Positions 47,126 to 64,000 of a stretch of DNA of 64,000 nt are shown here, one piece after another. The stretch comes from a virus. Under the pieces are notes generated by a model. It did no database searches, was not told where the DNA came from, and saw only the letters and a list, made by a program, of their open reading frames with translations. The first letter of the stretch is position 1; the number at the start of each line of letters is the position of its first letter. The stretch spans positions 21,851 through 85,850 of the IMG/VR virus record IMGVR_UViG_3300033146_004974; one strand, 5' to 3'. A program made the position numbers and the translations under genes.

Positions 47126-47150
47126 GACAGGAATCAGCAAAAGGAAAAAA

Positions 47151-47306
47151 ATGTGCAAAAAGAGAATCATTTTAGAAATTGAATTCCAGGATTTGAAAAG
47201 GAAATGCGAAAAAGGTTGCAAACATAAATTCTGCGATTGCAATATTGAAGAAGATTGCGAAAAATGTGGAGGATGCGGGATCGTCGAAGAGGATAAAAAA
47301 TCATAA
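47151..47306 (+). CDS. Small Cys-rich protein (51 aa)
   Basis: ATG 47151 behind AAAGGAAA. Eight Cys, mostly in CEKGCKHKFCDC and CEKCGGCG, sit in an otherwise charged chain. Probable zinc or other metal binding. A frame extending upstream overlaps A6 and was rejected. Confidence 0.5.
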   Translation: MCKKRIILEIEFQDLKRKCEKGCKHKFCDCNIEEDCEKCGGCGIVEEDKKS

Positions 47307-47348
47307 GAGCACTCATCAAACATCCAACCAATTCGAAAAGGGGATCAA

Positions 47349-49364: not shown

Positions 49365-49374
49365 AGGAGTTCAA

Positions 49375-49746
49375 ATGTTTGAACAAGCATCAAGACAAAA
49401 AATCCGTTTCGCTTCGACAGTTGGTTCTGTTACTGTCGAAGATCTTTGGGATATGAGTTTGTCAAAGCTCAATGCAATTGCAAAGGGATTGAACAAACAG
49501 TTAAAGGAATCCGAGGAGGAGGACTTTCTCAAAGTTTCGACAAAGAAGGATGAGATTCTTCAATTGAAATTCGACATTGTTTTGCACATCTTGCGAACCA
49601 AACAAGAGGAGCAAAAGGCAAAGAGAAATGAGAAAAAGATTGCTGAAGTTCGTCAGACTCTTTTGAGAATTAAAGAGGAAAAGATGAATGAGAACCTTCG
49701 CAATCTTTCAATCGAAGAGATTGAAGCAAAATTGTCAGAACTTTGA
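49375..49746 (+). CDS. Conserved phage helical protein (123 aa)
   Basis: ATG 49375 behind AAGGAG. The N terminus FASTVGSVTVEDLWDMSL, then FDIVLHILRTKQEEQKAK and SIEEIEAKLSEL fit a widespread phage family of unknown function. Mostly coiled helix. Directly followed by a terminator, so it is the end of the transcript from the array genes at 46.5 kb. Confidence 0.75.
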   Translation: MFEQASRQKIRFASTVGSVTVEDLWDMSLSKLNAIAKGLNKQLKESEEEDFLKVSTKKDEILQLKFDIVLHILRTKQEEQKAKRNEKKIAEVRQTLLRIKEEKMNENLRNLSIEEIEAKLSEL

Positions 49747-49752
49747 TGAACC

Positions 49753-49778
49753 AGCCACGCGAAAGCGTGGCTTTTTTT
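49753..49778 (+). terminator. Rho-independent terminator
   Basis: Perfect stem AGCCACGC/GCGTGGCT with a GAAA tetraloop and seven T after it. Confidence 0.93.
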
Positions 49779-49829
49779 ATGAGAATTTGAAAAAGTTTCG
49801 GAATTGAAATAGCGCAAATTGCGCGCGCA

Positions 49830-49859
49830 TTGACAAAACACGGGTGTTTGTGAGAGAAT
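49830..49859 (+). promoter_or_regulatory. Promoter P9 (TTGACA-18-GAGAAT)
   Basis: TTGACA at 49830-49835 and GAGAAT at 49854-49859, with box TGAAATAGCGCAAATTG upstream. Same family as P7 and P8. Confidence 0.6.
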
Positions 49860-49895
49860 AAAGTGTGAGGAATCGCACGCGTTTGCGCCGCGTCG

Positions 49896-49924
49896 TTGAC
49901 GCCGCACGCGGTGTCTGCTACTCT
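49896..49924 (+). promoter_or_regulatory. Promoter P10 (TTGACG-17-TACTCT)
   Basis: TTGACG at 49896-49901 and TACTCT at 49919-49924. A second promoter 65 bases after P9 and before the pentapeptide gene. GC-rich flanks (CGCACGCG) differ from the surroundings. Confidence 0.5.
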
Positions 49925-49983
49925 GAATGTGGGGCGTTGCAAGCAAGCGACGCGTGCACAAATCAACACCACAAGGTTAACAA

Positions 49984-51498
49984 ATGAGCGCCACAAAGCT
50001 TTCCGATTCTTTTTTTAATTCTTTTTCAGACTTCGAGAAAAAAGAAGTCTTAAAAGAGGAGTTTGACAATTACTTTTTTGAATCAACGTCGTTTCAAGAA
50101 AGTTCGTTCAAAGATTGCGAATTCGTCAATTCACAAATGGGACATTCAATTTTTGATGAATGTTCATTCAAAGATGTTTCGTTCAAAAATTGCGATCTAA
50201 CTTTCGCAATTTTTCGCAATTGTTCATTCCAAGATTGCGAATTTGAGCGTAATCAAATGAAGCAAGCGAGCTTTGAAAGATGTGAGATTTTGGCCAATTT
50301 CATTGATAATAATGTCGAAGGAATGGACATTGTTTCGTCCGTTCTGAAAGCTGCAATCTTCGAACACAAAGATTGCAGGATTCAGAATTCAGAAATTGTT
50401 GGGGACATTGATCTTGACGCTTCCAACATTTATGAATGCGTCAAAATTGACAAAGTTTCAAAACCGTTTGAAAAATATCATTCAAACGGTGTTCTTTTTT
50501 TTGGACAATTCACCGGAAAAATGGTGTACCAGAAAAGGAATATGAATTTTACTCTAGAAACAATGTCAGTCTTTGACGTTCGTTTGACAGAAAATGGCAA
50601 AAAAATGTTTGCCAAGATTCAAAAGTTTGGGAATATCGTTGAAATTTTGATCGATGTTTCCCAAGGAATCAAAAAAGATGTTCATGTCGAATTCCTATCC
50701 TTTTTGCAAGGGAATGTGCAATATGCCTTTTCCAAAAGAATTAAAAAAACCTTGCCTGAGTTCTTTGAAAAAGGTGTTCAATATCGCAAACCAAGGAATG
50801 AAGGGTTAAAAACTTGGAAAGATCACAAATTCCACAAGATTGCAATGCAATTCATTTTGAACGAGATAGGAACAGAATTTCTCGACTTTCCAAAAAAAGA
50901 ACAAGATAAAACTTTAGCTCTGGTTATCAGAGCATATGAGGGTTACCTTGCTCAGGAAAAAGCAAAGAAAGTCCGTGATTTTGCTTTGACGATTGAACTT
51001 GGGAAAAAAGAGGATCTTTCCAAGTTTCAAAAAATGGATTATCCATACACAAGCCAAATGCTAGAATTTTTGGCAATCAATCGAGCAATAGCCGCTGGTT
51101 TTGTTGATCTTGGCGAAGCAAAACAGGCTTTTAGATACGCTATGAATTCCCAGAATTCTTTTTCCAAAACTTTGTCCCTTGTTATGAATAAAATTCAACA
51201 TGTTATGCCTTTTGTTAAAGGTATGACACCATGGGGCAAAAAGATGGAAAATGCTTATATTGTTCGAGAAGTCGCAACAAAAAAAGAGGAGATTGCAATA
51301 ACTTTCCCGATCAATATCAACAAGGCGAGTTCAGAAGTGCTTGCAAAACTTCCCGGAATCAAAGAAGGTTTGGCAAAAAAGATTGTCAACGAAAGAATGA
51401 AGGGGAATTTTGTGAAGGTCGAAGATCTACGCTTTGTGAAGGGAATTTCAAGAGCGAAGGCTAAATCTTTGCAGGCGAAGGGGTTTGCGACGGTTTGA
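49984..51498 (+). CDS. Pentapeptide-repeat protein with C-terminal helix-hairpin-helix
   Basis: 504 residues. Residues 30-150 are pentapeptide-like with repeated FxxCxF steps (SSFKDCEF, CSFKDVSF, CSFQDCEF), which fold into a right-handed beta-helix resembling B-form DNA. The middle 200 residues are unassigned alpha/beta. Near the C terminus NINKASSEVLAKLPGI and GLAKKIVNERM form HhH motifs that bind DNA without sequence specificity. Pentapeptide proteins can mimic DNA and protect gyrase; this fusion could act on topoisomerase or DNA ends. Unproven. Confidence 0.7.
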   Translation: MSATKLSDSFFNSFSDFEKKEVLKEEFDNYFFESTSFQESSFKDCEFVNSQMGHSIFDECSFKDVSFKNCDLTFAIFRNCSFQDCEFERNQMKQASFERCEILANFIDNNVEGMDIVSSVLKAAIFEHKDCRIQNSEIVGDIDLDASNIYECVKIDKVSKPFEKYHSNGVLFFGQFTGKMVYQKRNMNFTLETMSVFDVRLTENGKKMFAKIQKFGNIVEILIDVSQGIKKDVHVEFLSFLQGNVQYAFSKRIKKTLPEFFEKGVQYRKPRNEGLKTWKDHKFHKIAMQFILNEIGTEFLDFPKKEQDKTLALVIRAYEGYLAQEKAKKVRDFALTIELGKKEDLSKFQKMDYPYTSQMLEFLAINRAIAAGFVDLGEAKQAFRYAMNSQNSFSKTLSLVMNKIQHVMPFVKGMTPWGKKMENAYIVREVATKKEEIAITFPININKASSEVLAKLPGIKEGLAKKIVNERMKGNFVKVEDLRFVKGISRAKAKSLQAKGFATV

Positions 51499-51525
51499 GC
51501 TAAACAAAACAATTTGCAGAACTTC

Positions 51526-51551
51526 AAGGCACCTTCGGTGCCTTTTCTTTT
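51526..51551 (+). terminator. Rho-independent terminator
   Basis: AAGGCACC/GGTGCCTT stem with a TTC loop, followed by TTTTCTTTT. Ends the pentapeptide gene transcript. Confidence 0.85.
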
Positions 51552-51571
51552 GTCTAAATCTAGGAAAAAAA

Positions 51572-51772
51572 ATGTTGGACATTCAATCAACCGCTTTGTA
51601 TCTTGATTCCATCTCAAAGATCCCGCTGGAAAAGAGAGAGGAAGCATATCAGATTTTGTTAAAAATCCCTGGATTCAATGCGCGATTGTTGATTGCAATC
51701 AATGAGTACATTAAGATCAGAAACTTGAGGGGGAACTTGAAAGACTTGGTGATGCCAGAAACAGAACAGTGA
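51572..51772 (+). CDS. Hypothetical protein (66 aa) heading the array
   Basis: ATG 51572 behind TAGGAAAA, after the terminator. Helical, LLKIPGFNARLLIAINEYI. Its TGA overlaps the GTG start of the first array gene (GTGA). No promoter was seen between terminator and gene, so read-through or a weak promoter must drive the array. Confidence 0.55.
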   Translation: MLDIQSTALYLDSISKIPLEKREEAYQILLKIPGFNARLLIAINEYIKIRNLRGNLKDLVMPETEQ

Positions 51773-51966
51773 GATACCGAAGATATGTTTCTTTGACAAG
51801 CAATCCTCTAATTTCATCAGCAGAATTTGAAACGTCAACCAAAGCAATTTTGGTTAACAAATTGAGTGATCCGACAAAAAAATGGATTGCAATTGATTAC
51901 CAACCTGAGATTTACTGGGGAAAGAGAGCTATTGAACAACTTTCTTTTGATAAGGCTTGGCAATGA
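51769..51966 (+). CDS. Array protein B1
   Basis: 65 residues, GTG start overlapping the previous stop. MRYRRYVSLTS start, core IAIDYQPEIYW, end DKAWQ. Shares the D-x-QP core with B2. Confidence 0.6.
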   Translation: MRYRRYVSLTSNPLISSAEFETSTKAILVNKLSDPTKKWIAIDYQPEIYWGKRAIEQLSFDKAWQ

Positions 51967-52184
51967 GGTCCAAAGATTTTAAAAAATGGAACAAGTTCAA
52001 TAATTATAGAATTCAGACAACTGAATATCCTGGGAGCATTGGTGAGCATTTCAAAAGCACAATCGTGCATGGCGAAAAACCATTTGATTTTATTGATTTC
52101 CAGCCAGATATTGTAAACTATTATTCAACATTTTACAGGGCAGTTAAAGAAGGAAAAATTTATTGTTCAAGAGAGTGGCAATGA
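51963..52184 (+). CDS. Array protein B2
   Basis: 73 residues, MRSKDFKKWNKF start, core FIDFQPDIVNYY, end SREWQ. ATGA overlaps on both sides. Confidence 0.6.
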   Translation: MRSKDFKKWNKFNNYRIQTTEYPGSIGEHFKSTIVHGEKPFDFIDFQPDIVNYYSTFYRAVKEGKIYCSREWQ

Positions 52185-52411
52185 TGCGTTTTAGAAAAGA
52201 GTCGGAAAAGATTGATAACTTGATCAATCGACATTATTTCTCTTTTAATCATCAAGCTCAATTTGAAGTTTTGAGTGCAACCCTTATTCGTGGTGCAAAG
52301 CCCAACTCCAATGAGAGAAAAAATTTTATAATATTTGTGGAATTAAGCACGATGGATTATATCCAACTTCTTTATGGCAAAACAGGCCCCTTCTTAAGGA
52401 AGCGGCAGTGA
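52181..52411 (+). CDS. Array protein B3
   Basis: 76 residues, MMRFRKESEKI start, core STMDYIQLLYG, end LRKRQ (Trp replaced by Arg). Two adjacent ATGs at 52181 and 52184 are possible starts. Confidence 0.6.
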   Translation: MMRFRKESEKIDNLINRHYFSFNHQAQFEVLSATLIRGAKPNSNERKNFIIFVELSTMDYIQLLYGKTGPFLRKRQ

Positions 52412-52617
52412 AATTTAGAACAACAATGAGCAGAGTTTCTTGCCCTTTTGAGCTAATTTTTGTCACAAGAGTTCTTGCTAACAGCAAAATAAAATTCTCC
52501 ATATTTTCAGGAATGTGGGAAATTGATTTGATAAATTTTTATACGCAAAAAGGTGAAGAGATAGAAAAAATGAATTTGGCAGATTTATGGCGTTATGAAT
52601 GGGAGGTTTTCCAATGA
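52408..52617 (+). CDS. Array protein B4
   Basis: 69 residues, GTG start, MKFRTTMSRVSC, core WEIDLINFYTQ, end EWEVFQ. Confidence 0.6.
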   Translation: MKFRTTMSRVSCPFELIFVTRVLANSKIKFSIFSGMWEIDLINFYTQKGEEIEKMNLADLWRYEWEVFQ

Positions 52618-52796
52618 AGTTTAGAAACAAATATTGCTTACACGAAAAATCTTTAAAAAAAGATTACTTATTTATAAGTGCTCAAATTTATCAAGATGGA
52701 CCAGCAAATTCATTCATTAATTTTCAACAATGGTGGACTCTTGAAAGAAAGGTTGGATTGTTTTTAGACAAAATTGGCGACAGAAATTGGCAATGA
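52614..52796 (+). CDS. Array protein B5
   Basis: 60 residues, the shortest full-length copy. MKFRNKYCLHEK start, core SFINFQQWWT, end GDRNWQ. Confidence 0.6.
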   Translation: MKFRNKYCLHEKSLKKDYLFISAQIYQDGPANSFINFQQWWTLERKVGLFLDKIGDRNWQ

Positions 52797-52817
52797 TTGT
52801 TGGAAAGAAGGCGGACC

Positions 52818-53048
52818 ATGAAATCAAGAAGCCAGTTTAAAAACACATCTGAAAGATTCGTTAAAGACAGCATGTTTGAAGCGATGGTTGTTAAAAAATA
52901 TGAGTGGAGAAGCACAACAGGAAAATCAAAAATGCTTGTTTCATTTGGCTGGGGATATGTTGATGAACTTGAATTTGTTAAGTTCAATGGAACAAAACTC
53001 TCAAATTTAAACAATTTCTGCTACAAACATTCAAGAGAATGGCAATGA
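52818..53048 (+). CDS. Array protein B6
   Basis: 76 residues, MKSRSQFKNTSE start, core DELEFVKFN, end HSREWQ. The junction here is broken by 21 bases, and the gene has its own AAGGCGG site before ATG 52818. Confidence 0.6.
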   Translation: MKSRSQFKNTSERFVKDSMFEAMVVKKYEWRSTTGKSKMLVSFGWGYVDELEFVKFNGTKLSNLNNFCYKHSREWQ

Positions 53049-53266
53049 TTTTCAGGAATTTGTCTCAAAATGTTTATGCTTATAGGCCATATGATCCAAC
53101 CATCATTCAACATAGAATATTCGAACATCCATATTCTTTTAAAACTTGTGAATTCACTCATGGATTCTGGACTGATCATCAAGTTTTGGTAAATTTCGGT
53201 GACATTCCAACAAATTTCTTTGGAGAAAATATTTCAAAACGATATTTTTCAGGAGCTTGGCAATGA
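53045..53266 (+). CDS. Array protein B7
   Basis: 73 residues, MIFRNLSQNVYAY start, aromatic middle (HPYSFKTCEFTHGFW), end FSGAWQ. Confidence 0.6.
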   Translation: MIFRNLSQNVYAYRPYDPTIIQHRIFEHPYSFKTCEFTHGFWTDHQVLVNFGDIPTNFFGENISKRYFSGAWQ

Positions 53267-53751
53267 GAAGATTTTTATTTTTAGATTTTGATGGAGTTTT
53301 GAATTCTATTCATTGGTTTAAAACCAGGAGAAGATTTGATCCCATGTTGAATGGAGTTTATTCCGAAGAATTATCGGAAGATTATGATTTAGATCCGTTA
53401 TGCGTAGGATTCCTTAACAAAATTGTAACAAACATTGAAAATCTTGAAATTGTCATCTCGTCGGCGTGGAGAATTTATAAATCCGTTTCTTATTTGGATT
53501 CAATATTGATGAGAAACGGATTTGTTGGAAAAGTATATTCCAAAACTCCTTTTTTACGACATGAAGGGAGAGAAGAGGAAATTTTCTCTTGGTTGCAAAA
53601 AATTGATGATGAGTATTCATTTGTCATTTTGGATGATGAATATATCATGGAACATCCGAGATTTGTTCAAACAAATGTGGAAACTGGTTTGACTGAAGAA
53701 AATGTTCAACAAGTTATCAAACTTTTTCAAGAGGCAGACCATGAATGTTAA
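53263..53751 (+). CDS. HAD-superfamily hydrolase inserted in the array (HAD_SAK_2-like)
   Basis: 162 residues starting in the TGGCAATGA junction. FLFLDFDGVLNS carries the HAD nucleophile Asp and second Asp, IVISSAWR is motif II, and FVILDDE motif IV. The SSAWR step and late TNVETGLTEENV match the HAD domains found in RNA-repair fusion proteins (HAD_SAK_2). It may remove terminal phosphates from nucleic acids or nucleotides. It uses the array's junction as its start, so it has been spliced into the cassette chain. Confidence 0.78.
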   Translation: MRRFLFLDFDGVLNSIHWFKTRRRFDPMLNGVYSEELSEDYDLDPLCVGFLNKIVTNIENLEIVISSAWRIYKSVSYLDSILMRNGFVGKVYSKTPFLRHEGREEEIFSWLQKIDDEYSFVILDDEYIMEHPRFVQTNVETGLTEENVQQVIKLFQEADHEC

Positions 53752-54013
53752 AAAGAATCTGCAATATTACAAAAAAGATTGCCCCATTTCTCAATTGCCA
53801 AAAGAAATTCGCCATTTTTGGAGCATGGTCAGAAAAAGACAGAAGATTGAAGTTTCAAGAGAATTGGCAAGAGAACTTCGTTTGGCACATTATGTCACTC
53901 ATTATGTGGTTGACAAAAGAGTTTACAAATTCTATCCTCAAACAAAAGAGATTGGCGAATTTCTTTGGCCATACATTGGGGAACATTGCACATTTATTGA
54001 AAATGAAGTTTAG
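53741..54013 (+). CDS. Hypothetical protein (90 aa) inserted in the array
   Basis: ATG 53741 overlaps the HAD gene by 11 bases. Basic and helical (RKRQKIEVSRELARELRLAH), not of the MKFR/W-Q family. A longer open frame in another register covers the same bases and was rejected. Unrecognised. Confidence 0.55.
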   Translation: MNVKKNLQYYKKDCPISQLPKEIRHFWSMVRKRQKIEVSRELARELRLAHYVTHYVVDKRVYKFYPQTKEIGEFLWPYIGEHCTFIENEV

Positions 54014-54209
54014 AAAAGATAATGAAGAATTCATGGAAAAAGCATTAGGGATATATAAGATGAGTTTTGCTAATGTTGTGTTGATTGAAAATGAAGATTG
54101 TTCATTCTTCTTTGCGACCTCTAACATGTTTTCAATCGATCACCTACCAGAGATCTTTCTTAATGAAAGAAATGTTTGGCCAAACGAATTCACAAGATCT
54201 TGGCAATAA
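54003..54209 (+). CDS. Array protein B8
   Basis: 68 residues from ATG 54003, MKFRKDNEEF start, core FSIDHLPEIF, end FTRSWQ. Overlaps the 90-residue gene by 11 bases. Confidence 0.6.
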   Translation: MKFRKDNEEFMEKALGIYKMSFANVVLIENEDCSFFFATSNMFSIDHLPEIFLNERNVWPNEFTRSWQ

Positions 54210-54220
54210 AATGGAAGATC

Positions 54221-54427
54221 ATGAGATATAGAAACATTTTTAAAATGATACAATACCGAGTCAACAAACAATATGGAAGATTTTGGCATTATACAATCGA
54301 TCCCGTTAATACTGCTGAGCCAGCTCATGTTGATGTTGATGATATTGAAATCGATTGTGTTATGACATATGATACTGATTCGGAATATTTTATGTATCTC
54401 TTTCCAATTGACAGATCTTGGCAATGA
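54221..54427 (+). CDS. Array protein B9
   Basis: 68 residues, MRYRNIFKMIQYRVNKQ start, core VDVDDIEIDCVMTYD, end DRSWQ. Clear close paralogue of B12 over nearly its whole length. Confidence 0.65.
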   Translation: MRYRNIFKMIQYRVNKQYGRFWHYTIDPVNTAEPAHVDVDDIEIDCVMTYDTDSEYFMYLFPIDRSWQ

Positions 54428-54624
54428 AGTTTAGAAAATCTTTTGAGATGGTAAGAACATATTGTTTCATTGAATTTGAAACAAGAATTATTATAACAGT
54501 ACCTCACATTGCGCCCAATAGAATGGAAATAAAAGTCACATTTCATAAGACACTGGATTATCTAAAACGTATTGAATTTGGTTATGGAGTAAGAAGAAGT
54601 AATTTTTCTCATGAGGCTCAATGA
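54424..54624 (+). CDS. Array protein B10
   Basis: 66 residues, MKFRKSFEMVRTY start, core KTLDYLKRIEFGY, end SHEAQ (Trp lost). Confidence 0.6.
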   Translation: MKFRKSFEMVRTYCFIEFETRIIITVPHIAPNRMEIKVTFHKTLDYLKRIEFGYGVRRSNFSHEAQ

Positions 54625-54815
54625 AGTTCCGTCAAGATATAACAACAACAAAATATAAAAAATTGGGCAACAAATATGCTATACTCTTTCACATCATTAT
54701 ACATTATGGCGAAAGTCATTTGGGAACTGTCCTTAAAGATATCGATTTTGTAACCTCTCACGCAAATGCAGGCAAATATAGAATTACCTCAACTTCTTCA
54801 AAAAATTGGCAATAG
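54621..54815 (+). CDS. Array protein B11
   Basis: 64 residues, MKFRQDITTTKYKK start, core LKDIDFVTSH, end SSKNWQ; stops with TAG instead of the usual overlapping TGA. Confidence 0.6.
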   Translation: MKFRQDITTTKYKKLGNKYAILFHIIIHYGESHLGTVLKDIDFVTSHANAGKYRITSTSSKNWQ

Positions 54816-54848
54816 AAAATCATGATCTATTGGACAGCGGAATGGGCC

Positions 54849-55055
54849 ATGAAATTTAAGAACATTTTTAAAATAATACAATACCATATTAGCAGGCAAG
54901 ATGGAAGATTCTGGCATTACACAATAGATTTTAGTGATGTTCTTGGGCCTGCTCATGTTGATGTTGATGACGCAGAAATAGATTTCTTAATGACGTATGA
55001 CATCGATTTGGAATACTATATTTACCTCTTACCATTTGATCAGAATTTGCAATAA
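54849..55055 (+). CDS. Array protein B12
   Basis: 68 residues, MKFKNIFKIIQYHISRQ start, core VDVDDAEIDFLMTYD, end DQNLQ. Paralogue of B9; the bases before its ATG (GAATGGGCCATGA) look like a decayed junction. Confidence 0.65.
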   Translation: MKFKNIFKIIQYHISRQDGRFWHYTIDFSDVLGPAHVDVDDAEIDFLMTYDIDLEYYIYLLPFDQNLQ

Positions 55056-55063
55056 GAGAATAT

Positions 55064-55108
55064 ATGAAGTTTCAAAGAGATGAGGTTAAGAAAAGGGATT
55101 GGCAATGA
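55064..55108 (+). pseudogene. Array remnant B13 (14 codons)
   Basis: A 14-codon frame, MKFQRDEVKKRDWQ, keeps the family's start and its W-Q ending but has lost the whole core. It ends in the usual ATGA overlap with B14. This is what deletion between the two ends of one cassette would leave. Confidence 0.6.
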
Positions 55109-55314
55109 TGTTTAGAGATCTTTTAGAGAATACTTCAGAAACTTATAATTGTGGTTGGGAAATATTCTCAACAACTTGCCCAGTATTTCTAAGAAAGAAT
55201 CCCGAACGAACTTATTTAAATGTTGATTATTTAGTTGAATACGAAGCATGGGAACATCTTACTCATAGGATTGTTTATAGCTACAAACAAAATTTTGTAC
55301 GAAGTTGGCAATGA
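55105..55314 (+). CDS. Array protein B14
   Basis: 69 residues, MMFRDLLENTSET start, core LNVDYLVEYEAW, end FVRSWQ. Confidence 0.6.
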   Translation: MMFRDLLENTSETYNCGWEIFSTTCPVFLRKNPERTYLNVDYLVEYEAWEHLTHRIVYSYKQNFVRSWQ

Positions 55315-55535
55315 ATTTTCAAAAAATTGGATGCGTTGTGAAATTTAGAAAAGAAATGGGTAAATATATTCAAGAAGTTCGTTCAATCGTATTTGAAAGT
55401 TACTCTCTTTCTTTTAGCAAATACGATTTTCTAATTGGACCTACTTTTGGTATTACAATGGATTATCAAAAAATTCATTTTAAATCAGGCTTTAAAAGTG
55501 GAACGTATCCTGGCTTTAAAAGAGAATGGCAATGA
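55311..55535 (+). CDS. Array protein B15
   Basis: 74 residues, with two family-like starts: MNFQKI at 55311 and, nine codons later, GTG at 55338 reading VKFRKEMG. The inner start is the better family match, as if two cassettes fused. Core ITMDYQKIHF, end KREWQ. Confidence 0.6.
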   Translation: MNFQKIGCVVKFRKEMGKYIQEVRSIVFESYSLSFSKYDFLIGPTFGITMDYQKIHFKSGFKSGTYPGFKREWQ

Positions 55536-55726
55536 AATTCAGAAAAGAGTTGAAAGGCAATTTTAGCCTTTATTCGACAACATTATTCCACACAATCATA
55601 CCAATTTCTTATGACAAAACAAGAGTGGCAGCATGGAGCTTTTCTGATATTGATTATCAATATGGGTTAAATTGTTATGGAGAATTTATTGAACAGATAT
55701 TTGCTTTTTCAAGAGATCGGCAATGA
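55532..55726 (+). CDS. Array protein B16
   Basis: 64 residues, MKFRKELKGNFS start, core FSDIDYQYGLN, end FSRDRQ. Confidence 0.6.
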   Translation: MKFRKELKGNFSLYSTTLFHTIIPISYDKTRVAAWSFSDIDYQYGLNCYGEFIEQIFAFSRDRQ

Positions 55727-55938
55727 AATTTAGAAAAGAGGTTGAAAATGAAGCACAACTGAAAACAACCCCTTTTCTATTTGTTCCTTTTGCAATTATG
55801 TTTCATGAATACCATATTAAAGAAGAGAACAGGGGCTTGCTTTGCTATAGAAGAGTTATTGATCACCTTTGGGCTTTCAATGAAAGCTACCCATTATTCA
55901 ATCAACGAGAATTCTTTTTTGGCAAAAATTGGATGTGA
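55723..55938 (+). CDS. Array protein B17
   Basis: 71 residues, MKFRKEVENEAQ start, core RRVIDHLWAFN, end FGKNWM as in the 22.8 kb pair. Confidence 0.6.
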   Translation: MKFRKEVENEAQLKTTPFLFVPFAIMFHEYHIKEENRGLLCYRRVIDHLWAFNESYPLFNQREFFFGKNWM

Positions 55939-55948
55939 TGAGGACAAA

Positions 55949-56239
55949 ATGAAAGAATATGAACTGAGGGGAGATTTAAGGGGATATTATGGATACCACT
56001 CTTTTCAAAACTATCCGAACACGGAAGAATCCGGCTGGTGGTTGGGGTTATCCTTTCCAGTCCTAGAGGACCGGGGAGGAGAGCAGTTTTTACACACTCC
56101 AAGACAATTAGAAGAACCCTATTTAATAGTGGGAGATGCTGTTAGGGGGGAAGTAGAGATTAGAGGCAAGAAAAGACAAGTCCGCACCATGACCATATGG
56201 TGTAACAAAAGGGAAATAATCATTGCAAAAATTCTCTAG
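55949..56239 (+). CDS. Hypothetical protein (96 aa) inserted in the array
   Basis: ATG 55949 behind GAGG. Not of the array family: Gly- and Trp-rich start (GYYGYHSFQNYPNTEESGWW), basic beta-rich end (VEIRGKKRQVRTMTIWCNK). No recognised motif. A 44-base gap follows, then the array resumes. Confidence 0.55.
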   Translation: MKEYELRGDLRGYYGYHSFQNYPNTEESGWWLGLSFPVLEDRGGEQFLHTPRQLEEPYLIVGDAVRGEVEIRGKKRQVRTMTIWCNKREIIIAKIL

Positions 56240-56283
56240 TCTCTGCCTTTTTCTTCTTAAGTTAACACACTTTAGGGAATACA

Positions 56284-56496
56284 ATGAAATTTCGTGACAT
56301 TTTGCCTCTTCAAATTCCAAATCCAATGCTGAATTCTTTCTTAACATTTGGAATCAAACTGCCTTTTGTTTTCGGTCATTATTGTTATGATTTGGGGTTC
56401 ATGTACAATCAGGTTGATATTCTTCCAGAACCATATCCTGAAACCTCTGGGGCAAAACCTTTCCGCGCCTTGAGATTTGAAAAAAGTTGGCAATGA
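56284..56496 (+). CDS. Array protein B18
   Basis: 70 residues, MKFRDILPLQIPN start, core YNQVDILPEP, end FEKSWQ. First cassette after the 55949 insertion. Confidence 0.6.
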   Translation: MKFRDILPLQIPNPMLNSFLTFGIKLPFVFGHYCYDLGFMYNQVDILPEPYPETSGAKPFRALRFEKSWQ

Positions 56497-56696
56497 AATT
56501 TCGTCAAAAATTTGCTAATAAGAAGCCATTTTTGCTTGCACAAATAGTGACATATGCAATTTTCACATACAATGTTAAATTTTACAGATTACTAGGATCT
56601 GGGATTAGTATCAACCCAGTCTTAAAAACGGTTGACTATTTGAATATTGAACAAATGTTTTCAAGAAAAACTCTCTTTTCAAAAGATTGGCAATGA
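56493..56696 (+). CDS. Array protein B19
   Basis: 67 residues, MKFRQKFANKKPF start, core LKTVDYLNIEQ, end FSKDWQ. Confidence 0.6.
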   Translation: MKFRQKFANKKPFLLAQIVTYAIFTYNVKFYRLLGSGISINPVLKTVDYLNIEQMFSRKTLFSKDWQ

Positions 56697-56719
56697 TTCA
56701 TGCCGACGAAGGAGGAAAC

Positions 56720-56920
56720 ATGAAATTTGTTTCTAAATTTGATGAAATCAATTTTTCCTGTTACGATAATTTTTTGATATATACAATTTCTCCATATTGT
56801 GACGATTTATGTTGCTCATTGGGAACCTTCATTGAAGTGAGACCAATTCTAAAGAATGTTGATCATATCATTCTAGATTATGTTGTGAGGCCAACACCAT
56901 TTGTGAAAGAATTTATGTGA
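56720..56920 (+). CDS. Array protein B20
   Basis: 66 residues from ATG 56720 with a strong AAGGAGG. MKFVSKFDEINFS start, core LKNVDHIILDY, end VKEFM, a divergent ending. Confidence 0.6.
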   Translation: MKFVSKFDEINFSCYDNFLIYTISPYCDDLCCSLGTFIEVRPILKNVDHIILDYVVRPTPFVKEFM

Positions 56921-56928
56921 GATGCAAA

Positions 56929-57120
56929 ATGAAATTCAGAGAAACTGAAAAAGATTCTGCAAAATTGAGCACAACTTTTTTTGACAGTTTGGTTGTTGCT
57001 TTCGCATTCCGAAGTGGACTCTATTTCGGACTTAAATATTTTGATTCGCTCCCATATGTTATAGGGGTGAAACCAGCATTTAAGAGGGAAAAACATAATT
57101 TTAACAGAGGTTGGCAATGA
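56929..57120 (+). CDS. Array protein B21
   Basis: 63 residues, MKFRETEKDSAKL start, core KYFDSLPYVIG, end FNRGWQ. Confidence 0.6.
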   Translation: MKFRETEKDSAKLSTTFFDSLVVAFAFRSGLYFGLKYFDSLPYVIGVKPAFKREKHNFNRGWQ

Positions 57121-57137
57121 AATTTCGTGGCATTTAG
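57117..57137 (+). pseudogene. Array remnant B22 (6 codons)
   Basis: After the usual TGGCAATGA junction the frame reads MKFRGI then TAG. Only the constant start is left, so the rest of the cassette is lost or mutated. The next cassette starts 33 bases later. Confidence 0.5.
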
Positions 57138-57169
57138 TGCTTTAAAAAAAGTAATATAATGGAACACTA

Positions 57170-57364
57170 ATGGAATATCGTAATAAATTAAAAAACTCGA
57201 TATGGAAGTGGTCATGGGAAATATTTGTAACAGGTTCTATTTCCCGCAATTCCGAACATAAAACTATTGTTCAAAGATATTCAATTGATTTATTGCCTAA
57301 AACTTCTGAAGACGAAATGTATTTACCATTTGTTGTCCTACGTTTTTCAGGCAAGTGGCAATAA
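57170..57364 (+). CDS. Array protein B23
   Basis: 64 residues, MEYRNKLKNSIWK start, core RYSIDLLPK, end FSGKWQ. Stops with TAA. Confidence 0.6.
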   Translation: MEYRNKLKNSIWKWSWEIFVTGSISRNSEHKTIVQRYSIDLLPKTSEDEMYLPFVVLRFSGKWQ

Positions 57365-57418
57365 GATACAAAATGGATGGGGGGATATTCATTCCTTCGG
57401 TCTTTTAAAGAGGCATTG

Positions 57419-57616
57419 ATGCGTTTCACAAAAGAAATGGGAATAAATTACGAACACGCCAACATTCTTTTCGAGCACTGGGTGATGACATTTAAATTGA
57501 AGTTCCACAATCCAACTTTGCTTGAAACAATTGATTATCAATCAATAATTTACGATAAGGCAGATTATTTGAAAAGTTTATCATTGTTCGAGTCTTTTTC
57601 AATAAATTGGCAATGA
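57419..57616 (+). CDS. Array protein B24, last cassette
   Basis: 65 residues from ATG 57419; longer in-frame starts at 57377 lack the family start. MRFTKEMGINYEH, core LETIDYQSIIY, end FSINWQ. The junction TGGCAATGA is present, but no gene follows it. Confidence 0.6.
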   Translation: MRFTKEMGINYEHANILFEHWVMTFKLKFHNPTLLETIDYQSIIYDKADYLKSLSLFESFSINWQ

Positions 57617-57742: not shown

Positions 57743-60385
57743 TTACCGTGCAAAAGAATGAAGAATTCTGATTCTGATTCGGCTTTCATTCAACATTCCA
57801 TTTTGTTTCAGAAACTTTCTCGCTTGTCCTTGGGATTGCCAATCAAGTTCTCCATTTTTGAGAAGCAGTGCGACAATTTCTGGATTTCCTTTTTTCAATG
57901 CTTTCCGCATTGTTCTTTCCTTGGGCCTGAGCCAACCTTTTTGTGCAAGAAATTGAAGAATTTCTATATCATCGATATAAAGATTTGTTAAATAATCAAA
58001 TGAAATATTTTTTTGTCGATAATATTTTTCAAGTTTTTCTGCCAGATCAAAAAGGTGGTTTTCCAATAGTTTTTGTAGAATAATATCGACAAAATGATAA
58101 CTAATTTTTGTTATCTTTTTATAACCACCTTTTTGGAAGAAATCGAGTGCGGTCTGATTTTTGTAAGTAAGTGCCCAATAAAGCAAATGATCCATTTCAT
58201 TTTCTGGGAGATATTTGAAAGCAAGAGGGATTTTCTTGCTGTTCTGCAACATCAACAATCTCAAATAATGTTCCCAACCTTCGTGCTGATCAAAATTTTT
58301 CAGGACTTTGATAAATGGAAAATCATCTGCCTCGTCATCAAGAATTGCTCTTATGACTCTTGAATCGCCAGCTCTTTCAGTATTGAACAAAAATTCAAAA
58401 GCTTCTTTATCTCCATAATTAATTGCTGTTATGAGGAAAATCAACGCATCATTTTCAAATTTTGGGGATTTGTTCGAGAAGTATGCCAACAATTTATTGA
58501 TTGGGTAAGAATGTTGAAACATGATTGCTGATAGAATGGCATTTTTATTGTAAGATGTTTTTTCATCTTTGAATAAGAAATTGATGACTTCCTCATTGTC
58601 ATATTCCACAGCATTTTTCAATACTATTCCTCTAGGATCTTTGCTTAGATTATTGGACAAAAGATGATTGATAACTTCCTCATTTTCTTCTTCCACAGCA
58701 ATTGCCAAAATTTTTCCTTCAGGATCTTTGCTCAGATTATTGGACAAAAGATGATTGATAACTTTTTCATTTTCATATTCCATGGCATTTTCCAAAGCTC
58801 TTCCTTCAGGATCTTTGCTCAGATTATTGGATAGAAGATGATTAATAACTTTTTCATTTTCTTCTATCACGGCATTTTTTAAGGCTCTTCCTTCGGGATC
58901 TTTGCTCAGATTATTGGACAAAAGATGATTGATAACTTTTTCATTTTCATATTTTACAGCAAGTCTCAAAGCTGTTCCTCCAGGATCTTTGCTTAGATTA
59001 TTGGATAGGAGATGATTGATAACTTTTTCATTTTTATATCCCACAGCATTTGCCAATTGCAATCCGAACTCATCAGAGAGAGTTGGTTGTTGTAAAAGAA
59101 AATCAACACCTTCATGATATTTTTTTCGCATAGCATATGTTAGACTCTCCGAATCTTCAATGTTAGCACCATGATTCAAAAGAAGATCTGCAATCTTCAA
59201 TTGTCTGCTTTCGATTGCTGCTCCCAATGGTTGATTGCTGTTGAAATTGATATCAGCACCGTCTTCAACAAGTTCTTTCACTTTTTCAAAATTGAGTTCT
59301 TTGATTGCGTCAATGAGCAATTCGCCACGTTTTTCAACTTCTTTTCGGACATCTTTTTGGTCCAAATCTGGAGTTCCGAACGTGAAACGATTTTCAATCC
59401 CTCCAAAATCGTTTTCGATTCCAACATTTTGAACAAGATCGTGCAATGAAAGGTCTTCATAAGCTCCACCAACAAGTTTGATCTCATTTTTGTCAGCAGT
59501 TTTCAACCATTCAAGTCCCTCTTGTTGATTGGTTATTAGAAACTTTGTCAATTCTCTTTCTGTTAATGAGCGCAAATTATGGTCATCACTATAAAACTTT
59601 GACCATGTGTAAACATTGTGTTTAAAATCTTTTGAAGCAAGTCTTCTGACTCTTGTCATCCCCTGGGTTTTGATCCCGTTAAAACCACGTTTTTTGTCAT
59701 AAAGAATCTCATCATTCGCAAAAGATTCATTGTTAAAGTTTTCTTGAATCCACTGTGCATCCTCGTCTGAGATATTGTAGACCATGAATCCATTGCTTCC
59801 AACTGCTTCTGAAATTGCACAATGGAAGAAAGCTTGTCCTTCCGTGTGACAGTTTGTTACAACATGGTCTGACATTTTCATGATGTCGATCGGATGTCTG
59901 GTCATTAAAAGATATCCACTTCCATCACGGTTTGTCTTCCAAGTTTGATAAGCTTTGCTATCCATGAAACGTTTAAACCAACCATCCTTGTCCAGTTTGA
60001 ACTTTCTAAAAAACCTGTTCAAACTTATCTTTTTTATTTTTGCTTTCGCTCTCCCATTGCTTTTTCTCATTGCATATTCATTTGGTTCTTCTAGCCATTC
60101 GACAATCCCCGTTTCAAAAGTTTTGTTCTCATCAGCTCCAATTTCTTCCAATTTGTTTCTAATCCTTTTGAAAGCTTTTTTGACTTTGGGATTTAAAACA
60201 TCTCCTTCCAATTTGAAAAGTCTTCTATTGCTTGGAAGCAGTTTTGAAATGCTTTTCATTCCATATTTAAAATTGTCCGAATCTGTTACAGTCTTGAAAC
60301 TCTTATGGATGTCCAAAGCAGTTTGTGAAACTTCATTCAGCCTGCTTCGTTTTGGACGAAGCAGCTTCTTCATTTTTATTTTCAT
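57743..60385 (-). CDS. Large ankyrin-repeat protein with conserved phage N-terminal domain
   Basis: 880 residues, the only clear minus-strand gene. Residues 1-330 include LMTRHPIDIMKMSDHV and CHTEGQAFFHCAISEAVG, a pattern I recall from large proteins of giant phages, with no known function. From about 360 come ankyrin units, then five near-identical 29-residue units (NEKVINHLLSNNLSKDPEG) at 445-600, then diverged units to the end. Units are shorter than the usual 33. A protein-binding scaffold is likely. On the minus strand TTGTCC-17-GTATCT lies upstream as a possible promoter. Confidence 0.75.
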   Translation of the reverse strand: MKIKMKKLLRPKRSRLNEVSQTALDIHKSFKTVTDSDNFKYGMKSISKLLPSNRRLFKLEGDVLNPKVKKAFKRIRNKLEEIGADENKTFETGIVEWLEEPNEYAMRKSNGRAKAKIKKISLNRFFRKFKLDKDGWFKRFMDSKAYQTWKTNRDGSGYLLMTRHPIDIMKMSDHVVTNCHTEGQAFFHCAISEAVGSNGFMVYNISDEDAQWIQENFNNESFANDEILYDKKRGFNGIKTQGMTRVRRLASKDFKHNVYTWSKFYSDDHNLRSLTERELTKFLITNQQEGLEWLKTADKNEIKLVGGAYEDLSLHDLVQNVGIENDFGGIENRFTFGTPDLDQKDVRKEVEKRGELLIDAIKELNFEKVKELVEDGADINFNSNQPLGAAIESRQLKIADLLLNHGANIEDSESLTYAMRKKYHEGVDFLLQQPTLSDEFGLQLANAVGYKNEKVINHLLSNNLSKDPGGTALRLAVKYENEKVINHLLSNNLSKDPEGRALKNAVIEENEKVINHLLSNNLSKDPEGRALENAMEYENEKVINHLLSNNLSKDPEGKILAIAVEEENEEVINHLLSNNLSKDPRGIVLKNAVEYDNEEVINFLFKDEKTSYNKNAILSAIMFQHSYPINKLLAYFSNKSPKFENDALIFLITAINYGDKEAFEFLFNTERAGDSRVIRAILDDEADDFPFIKVLKNFDQHEGWEHYLRLLMLQNSKKIPLAFKYLPENEMDHLLYWALTYKNQTALDFFQKGGYKKITKISYHFVDIILQKLLENHLFDLAEKLEKYYRQKNISFDYLTNLYIDDIEILQFLAQKGWLRPKERTMRKALKKGNPEIVALLLKNGELDWQSQGQARKFLKQNGMLNESRIRIRILHSFAR
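58590..59040 (-). repeat. 87-bp tandem repeat inside the ankyrin gene
   Basis: Five copies of an 87-bp unit, marked by AGATTATTGGA at about 58648, 58735, 58822, 58909 and 58996, with few differences. In frame (29 codons each), so copy number can change without breaking the gene. Confidence 0.85.
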
Positions 60386-60464
60386 TCATCCAGCCTTATG
60401 TTCTTCTTGATCAATTCCCAGATACAATATATATCGTTTTAAGGACAAAAGAATCTCCACATCC

Positions 60465-60522
60465 TTTGCCAGCTTGCAGAATTGTTCGCAATTGGGCGGA
60501 ATATCTTCTGCAAGCTGGCAAA
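60465..60522. repeat. 17-bp perfect inverted repeat
   Basis: TTTGCCAGCTTGCAGAA (60465-60481) and its exact complement at 60506-60522, 24 bases apart. It lies just upstream of the minus-strand ankyrin gene, so it may regulate that gene or form part of the origin. Confidence 0.8.
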
Positions 60523-60744
60523 ATCTTGGAAAACCATTTCCTTTGTTCGAGTCATAAAAATCAATTCTTTCTTAAGGAATGGTAGCCAACTCTGGGCACT
60601 ATCTTCTGCTTGTCAAAAGCAGAAAGAATGTCTCAAATTTCATTCTTGCTTGAAAAAGCAATGAATGAAAGCCGAAGAAATAAGTGGCCAATTCCTGTTT
60701 GTTTTCAATGATTTAAGAACAGATTGCGTGAGGGTTGAGAATAG

Positions 60745-60809
60745 GGTTGTGCAGAGGTTGTGCAGAGGTTGTGCAGAGGTTGTGCATAAGTTGCGCATAA
60801 GTTGTGAAT
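60745..60809. repeat. 11-bp iterons with DnaA-box-like sequence
   Basis: Four GGTTGTGCAGA-type units in a row, then GTTGCGCATAA and GTTGTGAAT. The fourth unit reads on the minus strand as TTATGCACA (60781-60789), which fits the DnaA box TTATNCACA. A spacing of 11-12 bases places the units on one face of the helix. Confidence 0.75.
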
Positions 60810-61519
60810 GGGTGCAGAACAAGTTGGAAAAGGTTGGGTGATTTTTGGAATTTTCCAAAAAAAGTCAAGCACTTTCTGCCATTTTTTGCATACCAGTTCC
60901 AAAAAAAGTTGATAATTCTTCTACAATTCTTTTAAAAAGTCATAAAAAATTAAAAAGCCTGGTACTCCACTCCCCTTCGGCACCATTTTAGCACCCTACC
61001 CCTTGGGGACTTTGCACCCCACTTTTTTTCATGTTTTTTAACAAAACGTGTATTGTAACCCATTAGAATCATTGATTTTTTAGGGGGGGGTCAAGCAACA
61101 TTTGGCCAAAATGCCTAACACATTGGTTTTAAATGGTTTTTCACGTTTTTCACATTTTTTCAAAACAAGGTTTTCGACCATCTTTTGACCAATTGAAGTG
61201 TCAAAAAGGGGTTAAAACGGTGTTTTTGGGCAAAGTGAGCGAACATGTTTGGTCGCTATTGCCTAAAGACTCCAGAAGATGTGTCCAATTGTCACACCCC
61301 ATTTGAGGCAGAAATTGTCCAATTTCTTTGGAAAAAGTGGGGCATGATCTTTTTGCGAAGCATTAATTAGTCTCCTCAAAATAAAAAAGTTTTGAAATGG
61401 AATCAATGAAATCACGACATTTTTGTCATAGTTCCCCAGAATTCTGCAACTTTTTGCGCACTTTTGGGAAAGAAGTTTTAGACTTTTTAAAAAAACATTA
61501 AAAACAAAAACTTTTGCAC

Positions 61520-61876
61520 TTAAATTAATGGTTTATAGTTAACCATTTGTTTAACTGTTAACCAACCAGCTTTTTGTGAACATTTTTCACAGTTTCCAAA
61601 CTGGTTAACTATTAACTCTTAAATTAATGGTTTACAATTAACCAACCAGTTTTTTGTGAACATTTTTCACAGTTTCCAAACAGGTTAACTATTAACTCTT
61701 AAATTAATGGTTAATTATTAACCATTTGTTTAACTATTAACCATTTGTTTAACTGTTAACCAACCAGTTTTTTGTGAAAATCTTTCACAGTTTCCAAAAT
61801 GGTTAACTATTAACTCTTAAATTAATGGTTTACAATTAACCAACCAGTTTTTTGTGAACATTTTTCACAGTTTCCC
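61520..61876. repeat. Block of 80-bp repeats rich in GTTAAC
   Basis: Four copies of a unit starting AACCAACCAG at 61560, 61640, 61758 and 61838. Each holds a TGTGAA-CATT-TTCACA hairpin and GGTTAACTATTAACTC. The middle gap is longer because of an extra TTAACCATTTGTTTAAC. Many GTTAAC palindromes could bind a protein. Confidence 0.85.
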
Positions 61877-62290
61877 CCATTGTTTAATAACGATGAGCAT
61901 AGATGTTTCAAAACATTTAAACAAAATGTGCAACATACTGTTTTTTAAGAGTTTTTTAAAACTACTGAAAAGTTTTTCAGTTCAAAACAGTTGGGTCATA
62001 TCGTTAAACATCATCGTCAACGGGCTTGAGCAGCCTTGAAAAGAACGATGATGAAAAGTCTTTACCTTCCTTTATCTTTTTGTTCAAGGCGTTCTGAGAG
62101 CCTCACAGAAATTGCATCATTCGGTTAACGGTTAAATGGCCCACAATTGGCCCACAATCGCTCACAAACAAACGTGCACTAATATAAAGGGCCAAGTTCA
62201 AGAGCACCACAGCGCAAACCAGAGCGGTTTATGACGATTTACACTCTCTTTTTGCCCATTTTTAGCTCATTTTTGAGCAGCTTTCATCCC

Positions 62291-62373
62291 ACACATTTTG
62301 TCGAACACCTTGGCACACATTTTGTCGAACACCTTGGCACACATTTTGTCGAACACCTTGGCACACATTTTGG
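62291..62373. repeat. 24-bp direct repeats
   Basis: Three full copies of ACACATTTTGTCGAACACCT plus TGGC starting at 62291, 62315 and 62339, and a partial fourth. In one frame they would encode HFVEHLGT, but a non-coding role is more likely. Confidence 0.8.
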
Positions 62374-62722
62374 CAAGGTGGACAAATATTCAGTAAAATA
62401 TGTTACGCATGTGAATCATTGTGCGCGCCATTGTAAGGTGTTGTTTTACAAGAGTTTTTCATTTTGTTACAGTTTCTCACGCAAGGTGCGCAAAGTTATT
62501 CGCAATACAGCATTGAATCTTGACGCTGGGTTGAACAAGATGATGAGACAATGCGCGAGGATTCGCCAATCAATGAGCGTAAGTCATTGATTAATAAGGC
62601 GAAAAGAGGTTTTGAAACTATTTTGGCAAAATTGCGGTGTTGGCTCGCAACTCGCATTAAGAGTACATGTCGCGACAATGAGACAAGCCAAAAAAGATTG
62701 TCGCGAAAATGGCGGAAAGGGG

Positions 62723-62750
62723 TTGCAAACGTGGCTCATTCCGCTATGAT
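62723..62750 (+). promoter_or_regulatory. Promoter P11 (TTGCAA-16-TATGAT)
   Basis: TTGCAA at 62723-62728 and the near-consensus -10 TATGAT at 62745-62750. It is 94 bases before the next gene's ATG. It lacks the upstream GAAAC box of the P1-P9 family. Confidence 0.6.
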
Positions 62751-62843
62751 GAGAGACACAAGGGAAGCACGATGGTTCGCGGATGGTTCGCGAACCGGGC
62801 AAGCTTCCCAAAATTGCGCAACAATTGCGCAAAGGTTAGAAAA

Positions 62844-63404
62844 ATGTCTGACAACACCAACACAATCGTTGCTTCCGTTGCTTCCGTTGCTTCCTCTTCC
62901 GTTGCTTCCTCTTCCGTTGCTTCCTCTTCCGTTGCTTCCTCTTCCGTTGCTTCCGCGAAAGAGCGGATGGTTGCGCTCCAAGCTGCTCTCCAGCGCGCAA
63001 TGAGCGCTGGTGACTTCGGCGCAATGGCGCGCCTCACTTTGGCCAGCGCCAAGCTGGCCAAAGAGGTTGTGACCGAGGAGAACGGTGAAAAAATCACCGT
63101 CCTCAAGAGACGCGCCGCCGCTTTCCGCACGGCGTCTGCGCTTTTTGCCAGTGCATCCGCGCTTTGCCGCGCCGAGAGTGAAGGGCTTGGAGCCACCTTC
63201 CAAGGCAGAAGCGGCGCAGAGGTTCTCAATCCAGACGCGGCGGAAGCGTTCATGCAGGCCGCGCTCGATGCCCTGCTCTGCCCAGAGGTTAAGCACCTTC
63301 ACGGGGTACCAAACCCCTTTGTTGAAGTTCGGCGGGTAGCGCCCGTCGAACTTGAGGAAGAACTTGAGGAAGAAGAAGAAGAAGAGGAATTGCTTGAGGA
63401 GTGA
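62844..63404 (+). CDS. GC-rich low-complexity protein (186 aa)
   Basis: ATG 62844 behind AAAGGTTAG. The start is a Val-Ala-Ser repeat (ASSSVASSSVASSSV), then Ala-rich helices (AFRTASALFASASALCRAES) and a Glu-rich tail (EELEEEEEEEELLEE). Base content is much richer in G and C than the neighbours, as if recently acquired or under different selection. No domain recognised. It has its own promoter P11 and hairpins behind it. Confidence 0.6.
   Translation: MSDNTNTIVASVASVASSSVASSSVASSSVASSSVASAKERMVALQAALQRAMSAGDFGAMARLTLASAKLAKEVVTEENGEKITVLKRRAAAFRTASALFASASALCRAESEGLGATFQGRSGAEVLNPDAAEAFMQAALDALLCPEVKHLHGVPNPFVEVRRVAPVELEEELEEEEEEEELLEE
62868..62954 (+). repeat. 9/15-bp coding repeats
   Basis: Two 9-base GTTGCTTCC units are followed by four 15-base GTTGCTTCCTCTTCC units and one more GTTGCTTCC, all in frame. 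Confidence 0.9.
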
Positions 63405-63412
63405 GCGATTCC

Positions 63413-63484
63413 GCGAGCGCTCAAGCGCTCGCACCTTAACCTAAGCTTTGGAGATTTTTTTTCCAAGGTTTGGTTTAAGGTGCG
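63413..63484 (+). terminator. Hairpin pair after the GC-rich gene
   Basis: GCGAGCGCT/AGCGCTCGC (63413-63432, CA loop) overlaps a longer hairpin in which CGCACCTTAA (63430-63439) pairs with TTAAGGTGCG (63475-63484), with further pairing inside and a T8 loop. They are alternative structures, so this could be a terminator or attenuator. Confidence 0.6.
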
Positions 63485-63743
63485 CAAATTTTGTGCCAAT
63501 AGTGCTACACCGGCACTATCCCCCTCCCAGGGTAGACCTTTGCGCAAAATTTGCAATAATGCGCAACAATTGCGCGAAGGGGTTGACAACCTCTTGTGTC
63601 ACTCTTTTTTTGTCCCAAATATTTAACCAAATGGTTTTGGAATGAATGTTGCATGAGACCTTTCAAACTTTGATGCAAAAAAGCACGCATAAATTCCCAG
63701 ATTTTCCTATGCAATTTATTCACAAATGTTTTGTTACAACATT

Positions 63744-64000
63744 CCTTTCAAACTTTGATGCAACATTCCTTTCAAACTTTGATGCAAAAAACCTTTCAAA
63801 CATTTGATGCAAAAATCCTTTCAAACATTTGATGCAAAAATCCTTTCAAACATTTGATGCAAAAATCCTTTCAAACATTTGATGCAAAAATCCTTTCAAA
63901 CATTTGATGCTAAAATCCTTTCAAACATTTGATGCTAAAATCCTTTCAAACATTTGATGCTAAAATCCTTTCAAACATTTGATGCTAAAATCCTTTCAAA
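63744..64000. repeat. 25-bp tandem repeats running off the window
   Basis: Eleven starts of CCTTTCAAA at 63744, 63768, 63792 and then every 25 bases to 63992. The unit is near CCTTTCAAACATTTGATGCA plus AAAAT. The first two copies have CTTTG in place of CATTTG; the last ones have GCTAAAAT in place of GCAAAAAT, so variants are spread in blocks. A lone copy lies at 63659. No spacers separate the units. Confidence 0.93.

What the first reader, a model, noticed from the sequence alone, without database searches (positions are those of the whole stretch)
63744..64000. 25-bp iterons at the window's right edge
At least eleven contiguous units continue past the window. The block-wise spread of GCAAAAAT and GCTAAAAT variants shows repeated local expansion. 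It could be a second origin, a partition site or a genome end.
Basis: seen in the sequence. Interest (0 to 1): 0.52.

Follow-up and report, generated by a model that had tools for sequence, protein, structure and literature searches.

The report
Phage contig ending in tandem repeats
A fragment of a large bacterial virus's DNA stops inside a run of near-identical 25-letter repeats; the repeats are real, but the place where they stop is most likely just where computer assembly failed, and what they do is not known.

Summary
The array is real. Ten complete units (two of 24 nt, then eight of 25 nt) plus a 9-nt stub fill 63744-64000. A lone copy, identical over 24 nt, lies at 63659. Tandem Repeats Finder scores the array 453; 300 shuffles reach at most 64. 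The variants are blocked as described: 1 GCAACATT, 1 GCAAAAAA, 4 GCAAAAAT, 4 GCTAAAAT.

The window's right edge is the end of an 85,850-bp IMG/VR phage record, so continuation beyond it cannot be seen here. The record's left end lies inside an open frame, so it is a fragment. The likeliest reason for a stop in mid-array is an assembly break at a tandem repeat.

The unit has a semi-palindromic core, TCAAA-C(A)-TTTGA. The array lies downstream of a gene's hairpin, in a compositionally odd 3.4 kb with four other repeat sets. Locally expanded repeats in a control region fit best. An iteron origin is possible but has no found initiator: RepA_N, Rep_3 and ParA-type searches found nothing. No relative of the array was found in viral or genome collections. 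Partition site and genome end have no positive support.

Low interest. A nearby family of about 18 small proteins ending in WQ may be more unusual.

The parts
63743..64000 (+). Tandem array: two 24-nt units (63744, 63768), eight 25-nt units (63792-63991), 9-nt stub (63992-64000); direct orientation only, cut by the record's end
63659..63682 (+). Lone copy, identical over 24 nt to unit 2 of the array; sequence on both sides differs
63887..64000 (+). Perfectly 25-periodic final 114 nt (GCTAAAAT block), where the record stops
63430..63484 (+). Strong hairpin after the 186-aa ORF, probable terminator (MFE -33.8 kcal/mol for 63425-63490, z -8.4)
62844..63404 (+). Probable gene, 186 aa, V-A-S-S-S repeats and Glu-rich tail, 58% GC; no known family and no relative found
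62816..62830 (+). Palindromic GCGCAACAATTGCGC, copy 1, upstream of the 186-aa ORF (possible operator)
63561..63575 (+). Palindromic GCGCAACAATTGCGC, copy 2, between the 186-aa ORF and the array
62290..62375 (+). 24-bp tandem repeat, 3.5 perfect copies, unrelated in sequence to the 25-bp array
61519..61875 (+). AT-rich (26-28% GC) interval of repeated 80/118-nt blocks with TGTGAACATTTTTCACA dyads and GTTAAC-rich palindromes
60745..60806 (+). 11-bp tandem repeat, 5.6 copies

Best explanation
Shown: this is a genuine, intergenic, AT-rich direct-repeat array, and the phage record ends inside it. Inferred with good support: the record ends there because the assembly could not cross a locally homogenised tandem repeat, so the edge is not a biological terminus. 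Inferred from the blocks: the array grew recently by repeated local duplication (slippage or unequal recombination), first from a 24-nt unit and then from a 25-nt derivative. Inferred, weakly (I give this step about 0.35): the semi-palindromic core TCAAA-C(A)-TTTGA is a binding site for a phage DNA-binding protein, and the cluster belongs to a noncoding control region (origin or transcription control) that starts after the ankyrin gene and contains four other repeat sets.
For: The window end is the record end, which IMG/VR classes as linear without end repeats. The left end lies in an open frame that runs off the record just before a tail sheath gene. TRF score 453 against a maximum of 64 in 300 shuffles. 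Blocks of identical units and the 24-to-25-nt step; final perfect periodic run of 114 nt. All 10 complete units keep both dyad arms, and the lone copy has the 24-nt form. The array follows a strong hairpin. Other repeat sets crowd the last 3.3 kb. Tetranucleotide distance is 0.343 and 0.360 in the last two 2.5-kb windows against 0.163-0.281 in the other 33. Papers: tandem repeats 'frequently terminate contigs' (PMC9879509, passages seen); assemblers leave a fixed-length repeat end at such breaks (PMC10914622, passage seen). One of 37 visible contig ends in 80 distantly related phage loci also lies in a tandem array, expected 0.11.
Against: No read data are held, so the assembly break is inferred. 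The final 114-nt run does not equal a k-mer length that I recall as standard (recalled, no call). The ten units are copies of each other, so their shared dyad is not independent evidence of function. The dyad arms are only 5 bp, and the array as single-stranded DNA folds no better than shuffles (z 0.28). The neighbouring repeat sets have unrelated sequences, which suits a duplication-prone region as well as a binding region. No relative of the array was found in the two collections scanned, so there is no conservation test.
Confidence: 0.6

Rival explanations
1. Iteron-type replication origin: a phage initiator binds the repeated semi-palindromic units, melts nearby AT-rich DNA and loads the phage's DnaB-like helicase.
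For: Semi-palindromic direct repeats in an AT-rich intergenic stretch. The phage carries DnaB-like helicase, DnaE-like polymerase, SSB-like protein and DNA ligase genes. Precedents: SPP1 oriL/oriR with direct repeats plus AT-rich DUE (PMC6316719, passage); lambda/Stx O iterons, each an inverted repeat (PMC7466680, passages); PLE RepA iterons with inverted sub-repeats, where a natural variant has one extra base between them (PMC8263062, PMC7145576, passages).
Against: No RepA_N or Rep_3 match at E<=1 (the RepA_N control reached its cut-off in 0 of 14 genomes, so that control is weak). Ten or more near-identical units are many more than lambda's 4 or PLE's 3. 25 bp is 2.4 helical turns, not a whole number. 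The neighbouring 186-aa ORF has no known family.
Confidence: 0.25
2. Neutral minisatellite: a stretch prone to slippage, without function, like the rapidly evolving tandem repeats of Borg elements.
For: Several unrelated repeat sets in the same 3.3 kb. In this record the arrays that I assign to ORFs have units divisible by three, while the 25-, 11-, 80- and 19-bp arrays lie outside, the pattern reported for Borgs (PMC9879509, passages). The array is preceded by a partial unit, CAACATT, as described there.
Against: The lone 24-nt copy 85 bp upstream is identical for just one unit with different flanks, and the dyad arms survive the one-base insertion; both hint at a preserved module, weakly.
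Confidence: 0.35
3. Partition centromere (parS/parC/tubC-like) of a plasmid-like phage.
For: Centromeres of such systems can be iteron arrays (recalled).
Against: No ParA-type ATPase at E<=1, while the control rang in 14 of 14 genomes; no partition, integrase or repressor family among 57 ORFs scanned. The record is a fragment, so absence is not proof.
Confidence: 0.04
4. Physical genome terminus with terminal repeats.
For: The array reaches the very last base of the record.
Against: The record's other end is in an open frame and does not hold the array sequence, so the record is a fragment. Stopping in mid-unit with 9 nt of the next is what an assembly break gives.
Confidence: 0.04
5. The last ~3.4 kb is not phage DNA but a chimeric join to another replicon.
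For: Composition differs; GC reaches 0.62 at 63001; codon score of the 186-aa ORF is negative against phage genes.
Against: The array itself has low GC, like the phage. Noncoding and repeat-rich DNA would also score as different. The ankyrin ORF next to it scores as phage-like. No bacterial relative of the 186-aa ORF was found.
Confidence: 0.1

Closest known systems
Phage and satellite iteron origins (lambda/Stx ori, SPP1 oriL/oriR, PLE ori of the ICP1 satellite)
   Same: Direct repeats in an AT-rich setting, with an inverted sub-repeat in lambda and PLE; descriptions read as passages
   Different: Ten or more nearly identical abutting units; no known initiator gene found; function untested; core and length not those of these systems
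Tandem repeat regions of Borg elements (VNTR-like)
   Same: Perfect or near-perfect intergenic units of about 20-25 nt, a one-base length step within an array, flanking partial unit, several unrelated arrays, contigs ending in them (PMC9879509, passages)
   Different: This is a tailed-phage record (tail sheath, tail tube, baseplate hub), not a Borg; copy-number variation is untested

Membership tests
Iteron-type replication origin | Array of short direct repeats in intergenic DNA | tested here: met
Iteron-type replication origin | Cognate initiator gene (RepA_N, Rep_3) | tested here: not met
   0 matches at E<=1 for PF06970 and PF01051 in the 85,850-bp record; the record is a fragment, and lambda O-type families were not searched by name
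Iteron-type replication origin | AT-rich unwinding element beside the iterons | tested here: inconclusive
   The array is 28% GC; a 26-28% GC stretch lies at 61501-62000, about 1.8 kb away; the far side is not held
Iteron-type replication origin | Initiation of replication there | not testable with these tools
   needs read-depth or 2D-gel mapping
Partition centromere | Partition NTPase encoded with it (ParA type) | tested here: not met
   PF13614: 0 matches at E<=1; control 14 of 14
Partition centromere | ParM or TubZ with adaptor | not tested
   only indirectly: no such PHROG among 57 ORFs
Genome terminus | Terminal repeat shared by both ends, or intact ends | tested here: not met
   Array sequence absent from the left end; left end lies in an open frame; IMG/VR reports no end repeats. 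A different, unassembled left end is not excluded
CRISPR array | Unique spacers between repeats | tested here: not met
   Units abut and the whole unit repeats
Minisatellite / VNTR | Near-identical tandem units with homogenised blocks | tested here: met
Minisatellite / VNTR | Copy number varies in the population | not testable with these tools
   no reads held

The most novel reading that the evidence does not exclude
A large tailed phage without a recognised initiator uses a long, actively expanding array of semi-palindromic 25-bp units, in a repeat-crowded noncoding region, as an origin bound by a new protein family (perhaps the orphan 186-aa protein encoded beside it).
Probability: 0.06. 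Interest if true: 0.6.

Novelty: new member of a known kind. Interest (0 to 1): 0.2.

Why it matters
Mostly as a caution: a repeat at a contig edge looks like a terminus or origin but is where assemblies commonly stop. If the array is a functional iteron cluster, it would mark the control region of a phage lineage with no close relatives in the collections searched, and would give a handle on how large phages without a known initiator start replication.

Tried and rejected
Chance: rejected by shuffles. Relatives by DNA: 2 viral contigs share a 19-mer of the unit, but both copies sit singly inside the same kind of coding-looking sequence and are taken as chance; the tandem pattern has 0 matches in viral contigs and genome contigs; no blastn match of 61000-64000 in phages or of 63600-64000 in plasmids. 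Relatives by protein: none for the 504-aa ORF, DnaE-like polymerase, 186-aa ORF or ankyrin ORF in the collections named in those calls, except that the polymerase has 1,355 distant matches in phages, all below 60% identity. The 671-aa protein gave 462 relatives in viral contigs, of which the best 80 were kept, none above 48% identity; in 50 of those 80 records the polymerase matched in 18, at 42% identity or less. Those 80 loci (1.55 Mb) hold no array of period 12-60 with at least 4 copies and 85% matches, so they give no homologous array. CRISPR: rejected, no spacers. RNA families: only one tRNA in the window. Promoter scan: no excess over shuffles. Structure of the 186-aa protein: one sequence, mean pLDDT 53, too poor for a fold search, which I did not run. 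Explaining the 114-nt final run by a standard assembler k-mer: no fit, left open. Literature on tandem repeats in phage origins: searches gave precedents but nothing on this array.

Full report
What was checked. The window is bases 21851-85850 of an 85,850-base IMG/VR virus record classed as linear (no end repeats found), so the window's right edge is the end of the record. TRF finds a 25-bp array at 63743-64000, 10.4 copies, 97% matches, score 453. In 300 dinucleotide shuffles of 60001-64000 the highest score is 64. Read unit by unit, there are two 24-nt units, eight 25-nt units and a 9-nt stub. The tails are GCAACATT, GCAAAAAA, four GCAAAAAT and four GCTAAAAT. A lone copy at 63659 matches unit 2 over exactly 24 nt and differs on both sides. 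The array occurs once, on one strand, in the record.

What kind of genome. The record carries tail sheath, tail tube and baseplate-hub-like genes, a DnaB-like helicase, a DnaE-like polymerase, ribonucleotide reductase, thymidylate synthase, dUTPase, GroEL, an SSB-like protein, DNA ligase, RNA ligase and a tRNA nucleotidyltransferase (PHROGs, 57 distinct ORFs scanned; the polymerase is called DnaE-like from its matches). It is therefore a large contractile-tailed phage. Its left end lies in an open frame of 111 residues that runs off the record just before the tail sheath gene, so the record is a fragment. The 671-aa protein has 462 relatives in viral contigs, none above 48% identity among the 80 kept; no close relative of the phage was found.

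Setting of the array. Most of the larger ORFs run on the plus strand to about 57.6 kb. An 880-aa ankyrin-repeat ORF follows on the minus strand (57743-60385). From 60.4 to 62.8 kb no ORF was assigned with confidence, and there are three repeat sets (60745, 11 bp; 61519-61875, 80/118-nt blocks; 62290, 24 bp). A 186-aa ORF follows at 62844-63404; it carries a fourth set, 15-bp coding repeats, and is followed by a strong hairpin (z -8.4). Two palindromes GCGCAACAATTGCGC flank it. The array starts about 340 bp after its stop. The last two 2.5-kb windows are the most divergent in tetranucleotide use (0.343 and 0.360 against 0.163-0.281 in the other 33).

Interpretation. That the record stops in mid-unit inside a perfectly periodic run (114 nt), while its other end lies in an open frame, is best explained by assembly. 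Published work reports that tandem repeats frequently terminate contigs (PMC9879509, passages) and that assemblers leave a fixed-length repeat end at such breaks (PMC10914622, passage). In 80 distantly related loci, 1 of 37 visible contig ends lies in a tandem array, against 0.11 expected from array coverage; this is one case only. The 114-nt run does not match a k-mer length that I recall as usual, and no reads are held, so this remains inference.

How it grew. The blocks of identical units imply successive local duplications. The step from 24 to 25 nt is one inserted A in the middle of the dyad, TCAAA-C-TTTGA to TCAAA-CA-TTTGA, and both arms survive in all 10 complete units. Since the units are copies, this is not ten independent observations. 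Before the array and its lone copy, the 11-nt core occurs once and the 12-nt core once in the record, no more than chance gives (1.95 and 1.4 expected).

What it may do. A semi-palindromic direct repeat is the anatomy of many initiator sites. Lambda-type iterons are inverted repeats bound by O (PMC7466680, passages). SPP1's origins combine direct repeats with an AT-rich region (PMC6316719, passage). The PLE satellite's RepA binds semi-palindromic repeats, and a natural variant with an extra base between sub-repeats still replicates (PMC8263062, passages). But no RepA_N or Rep_3 initiator was found, the unit count is high, and the neighbouring repeat sets have unrelated sequences, so a duplication-prone control region without specific function is about as likely. 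Partition has no support. A terminus has no positive evidence.

Verdict. A real array of a known kind, at a contig edge that is most likely technical. Function is open: binding-site cluster about 0.35, of which an origin is the larger part; neutral minisatellite about 0.35.

Noticed in passing
window 46456-57616, mainly 51770-57616: A family of about 18 small plus-strand ORFs (many 64-83 aa) with the pattern M-(K/R)-(F/Y)-R ... F ... D ... W-Q-stop (alignment of 18); the stop usually overlaps the next start in TGGCAATGA. 17 open segments of at least 30 aa end in WQ on the plus strand and 0 on the minus strand, against 18 in 1.55 Mb of 80 distantly related phage loci. Of four tested, one against PHROGs and three against Pfam, none had a hit. 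The boundary pattern matched 5 viral contigs, none with such a family. It looks like an expanded, fast-diverging paralog cassette array.
   Followed up: partly
window 57743-60385 (-): 880-aa protein with ankyrin repeats (Pfam Ank_2 E 1.1e-23), including 87-bp DNA repeats; no tblastn match in 50,697 phage records.
   Followed up: partly
window 61519-61875: AT-rich noncoding interval with repeated TTTTTGTGAACATTTTTCACAGTTTCC and GTTAAC-rich palindromes; possibly regulatory.
   Followed up: no
window 39180-39369: Repeat of 21/42/96 bp inside the ORF 38417-39400.
   Followed up: no
L026 1-217: A distantly related phage contig also ends exactly in a tandem array (87 bp x 2.5).
   Followed up: partly
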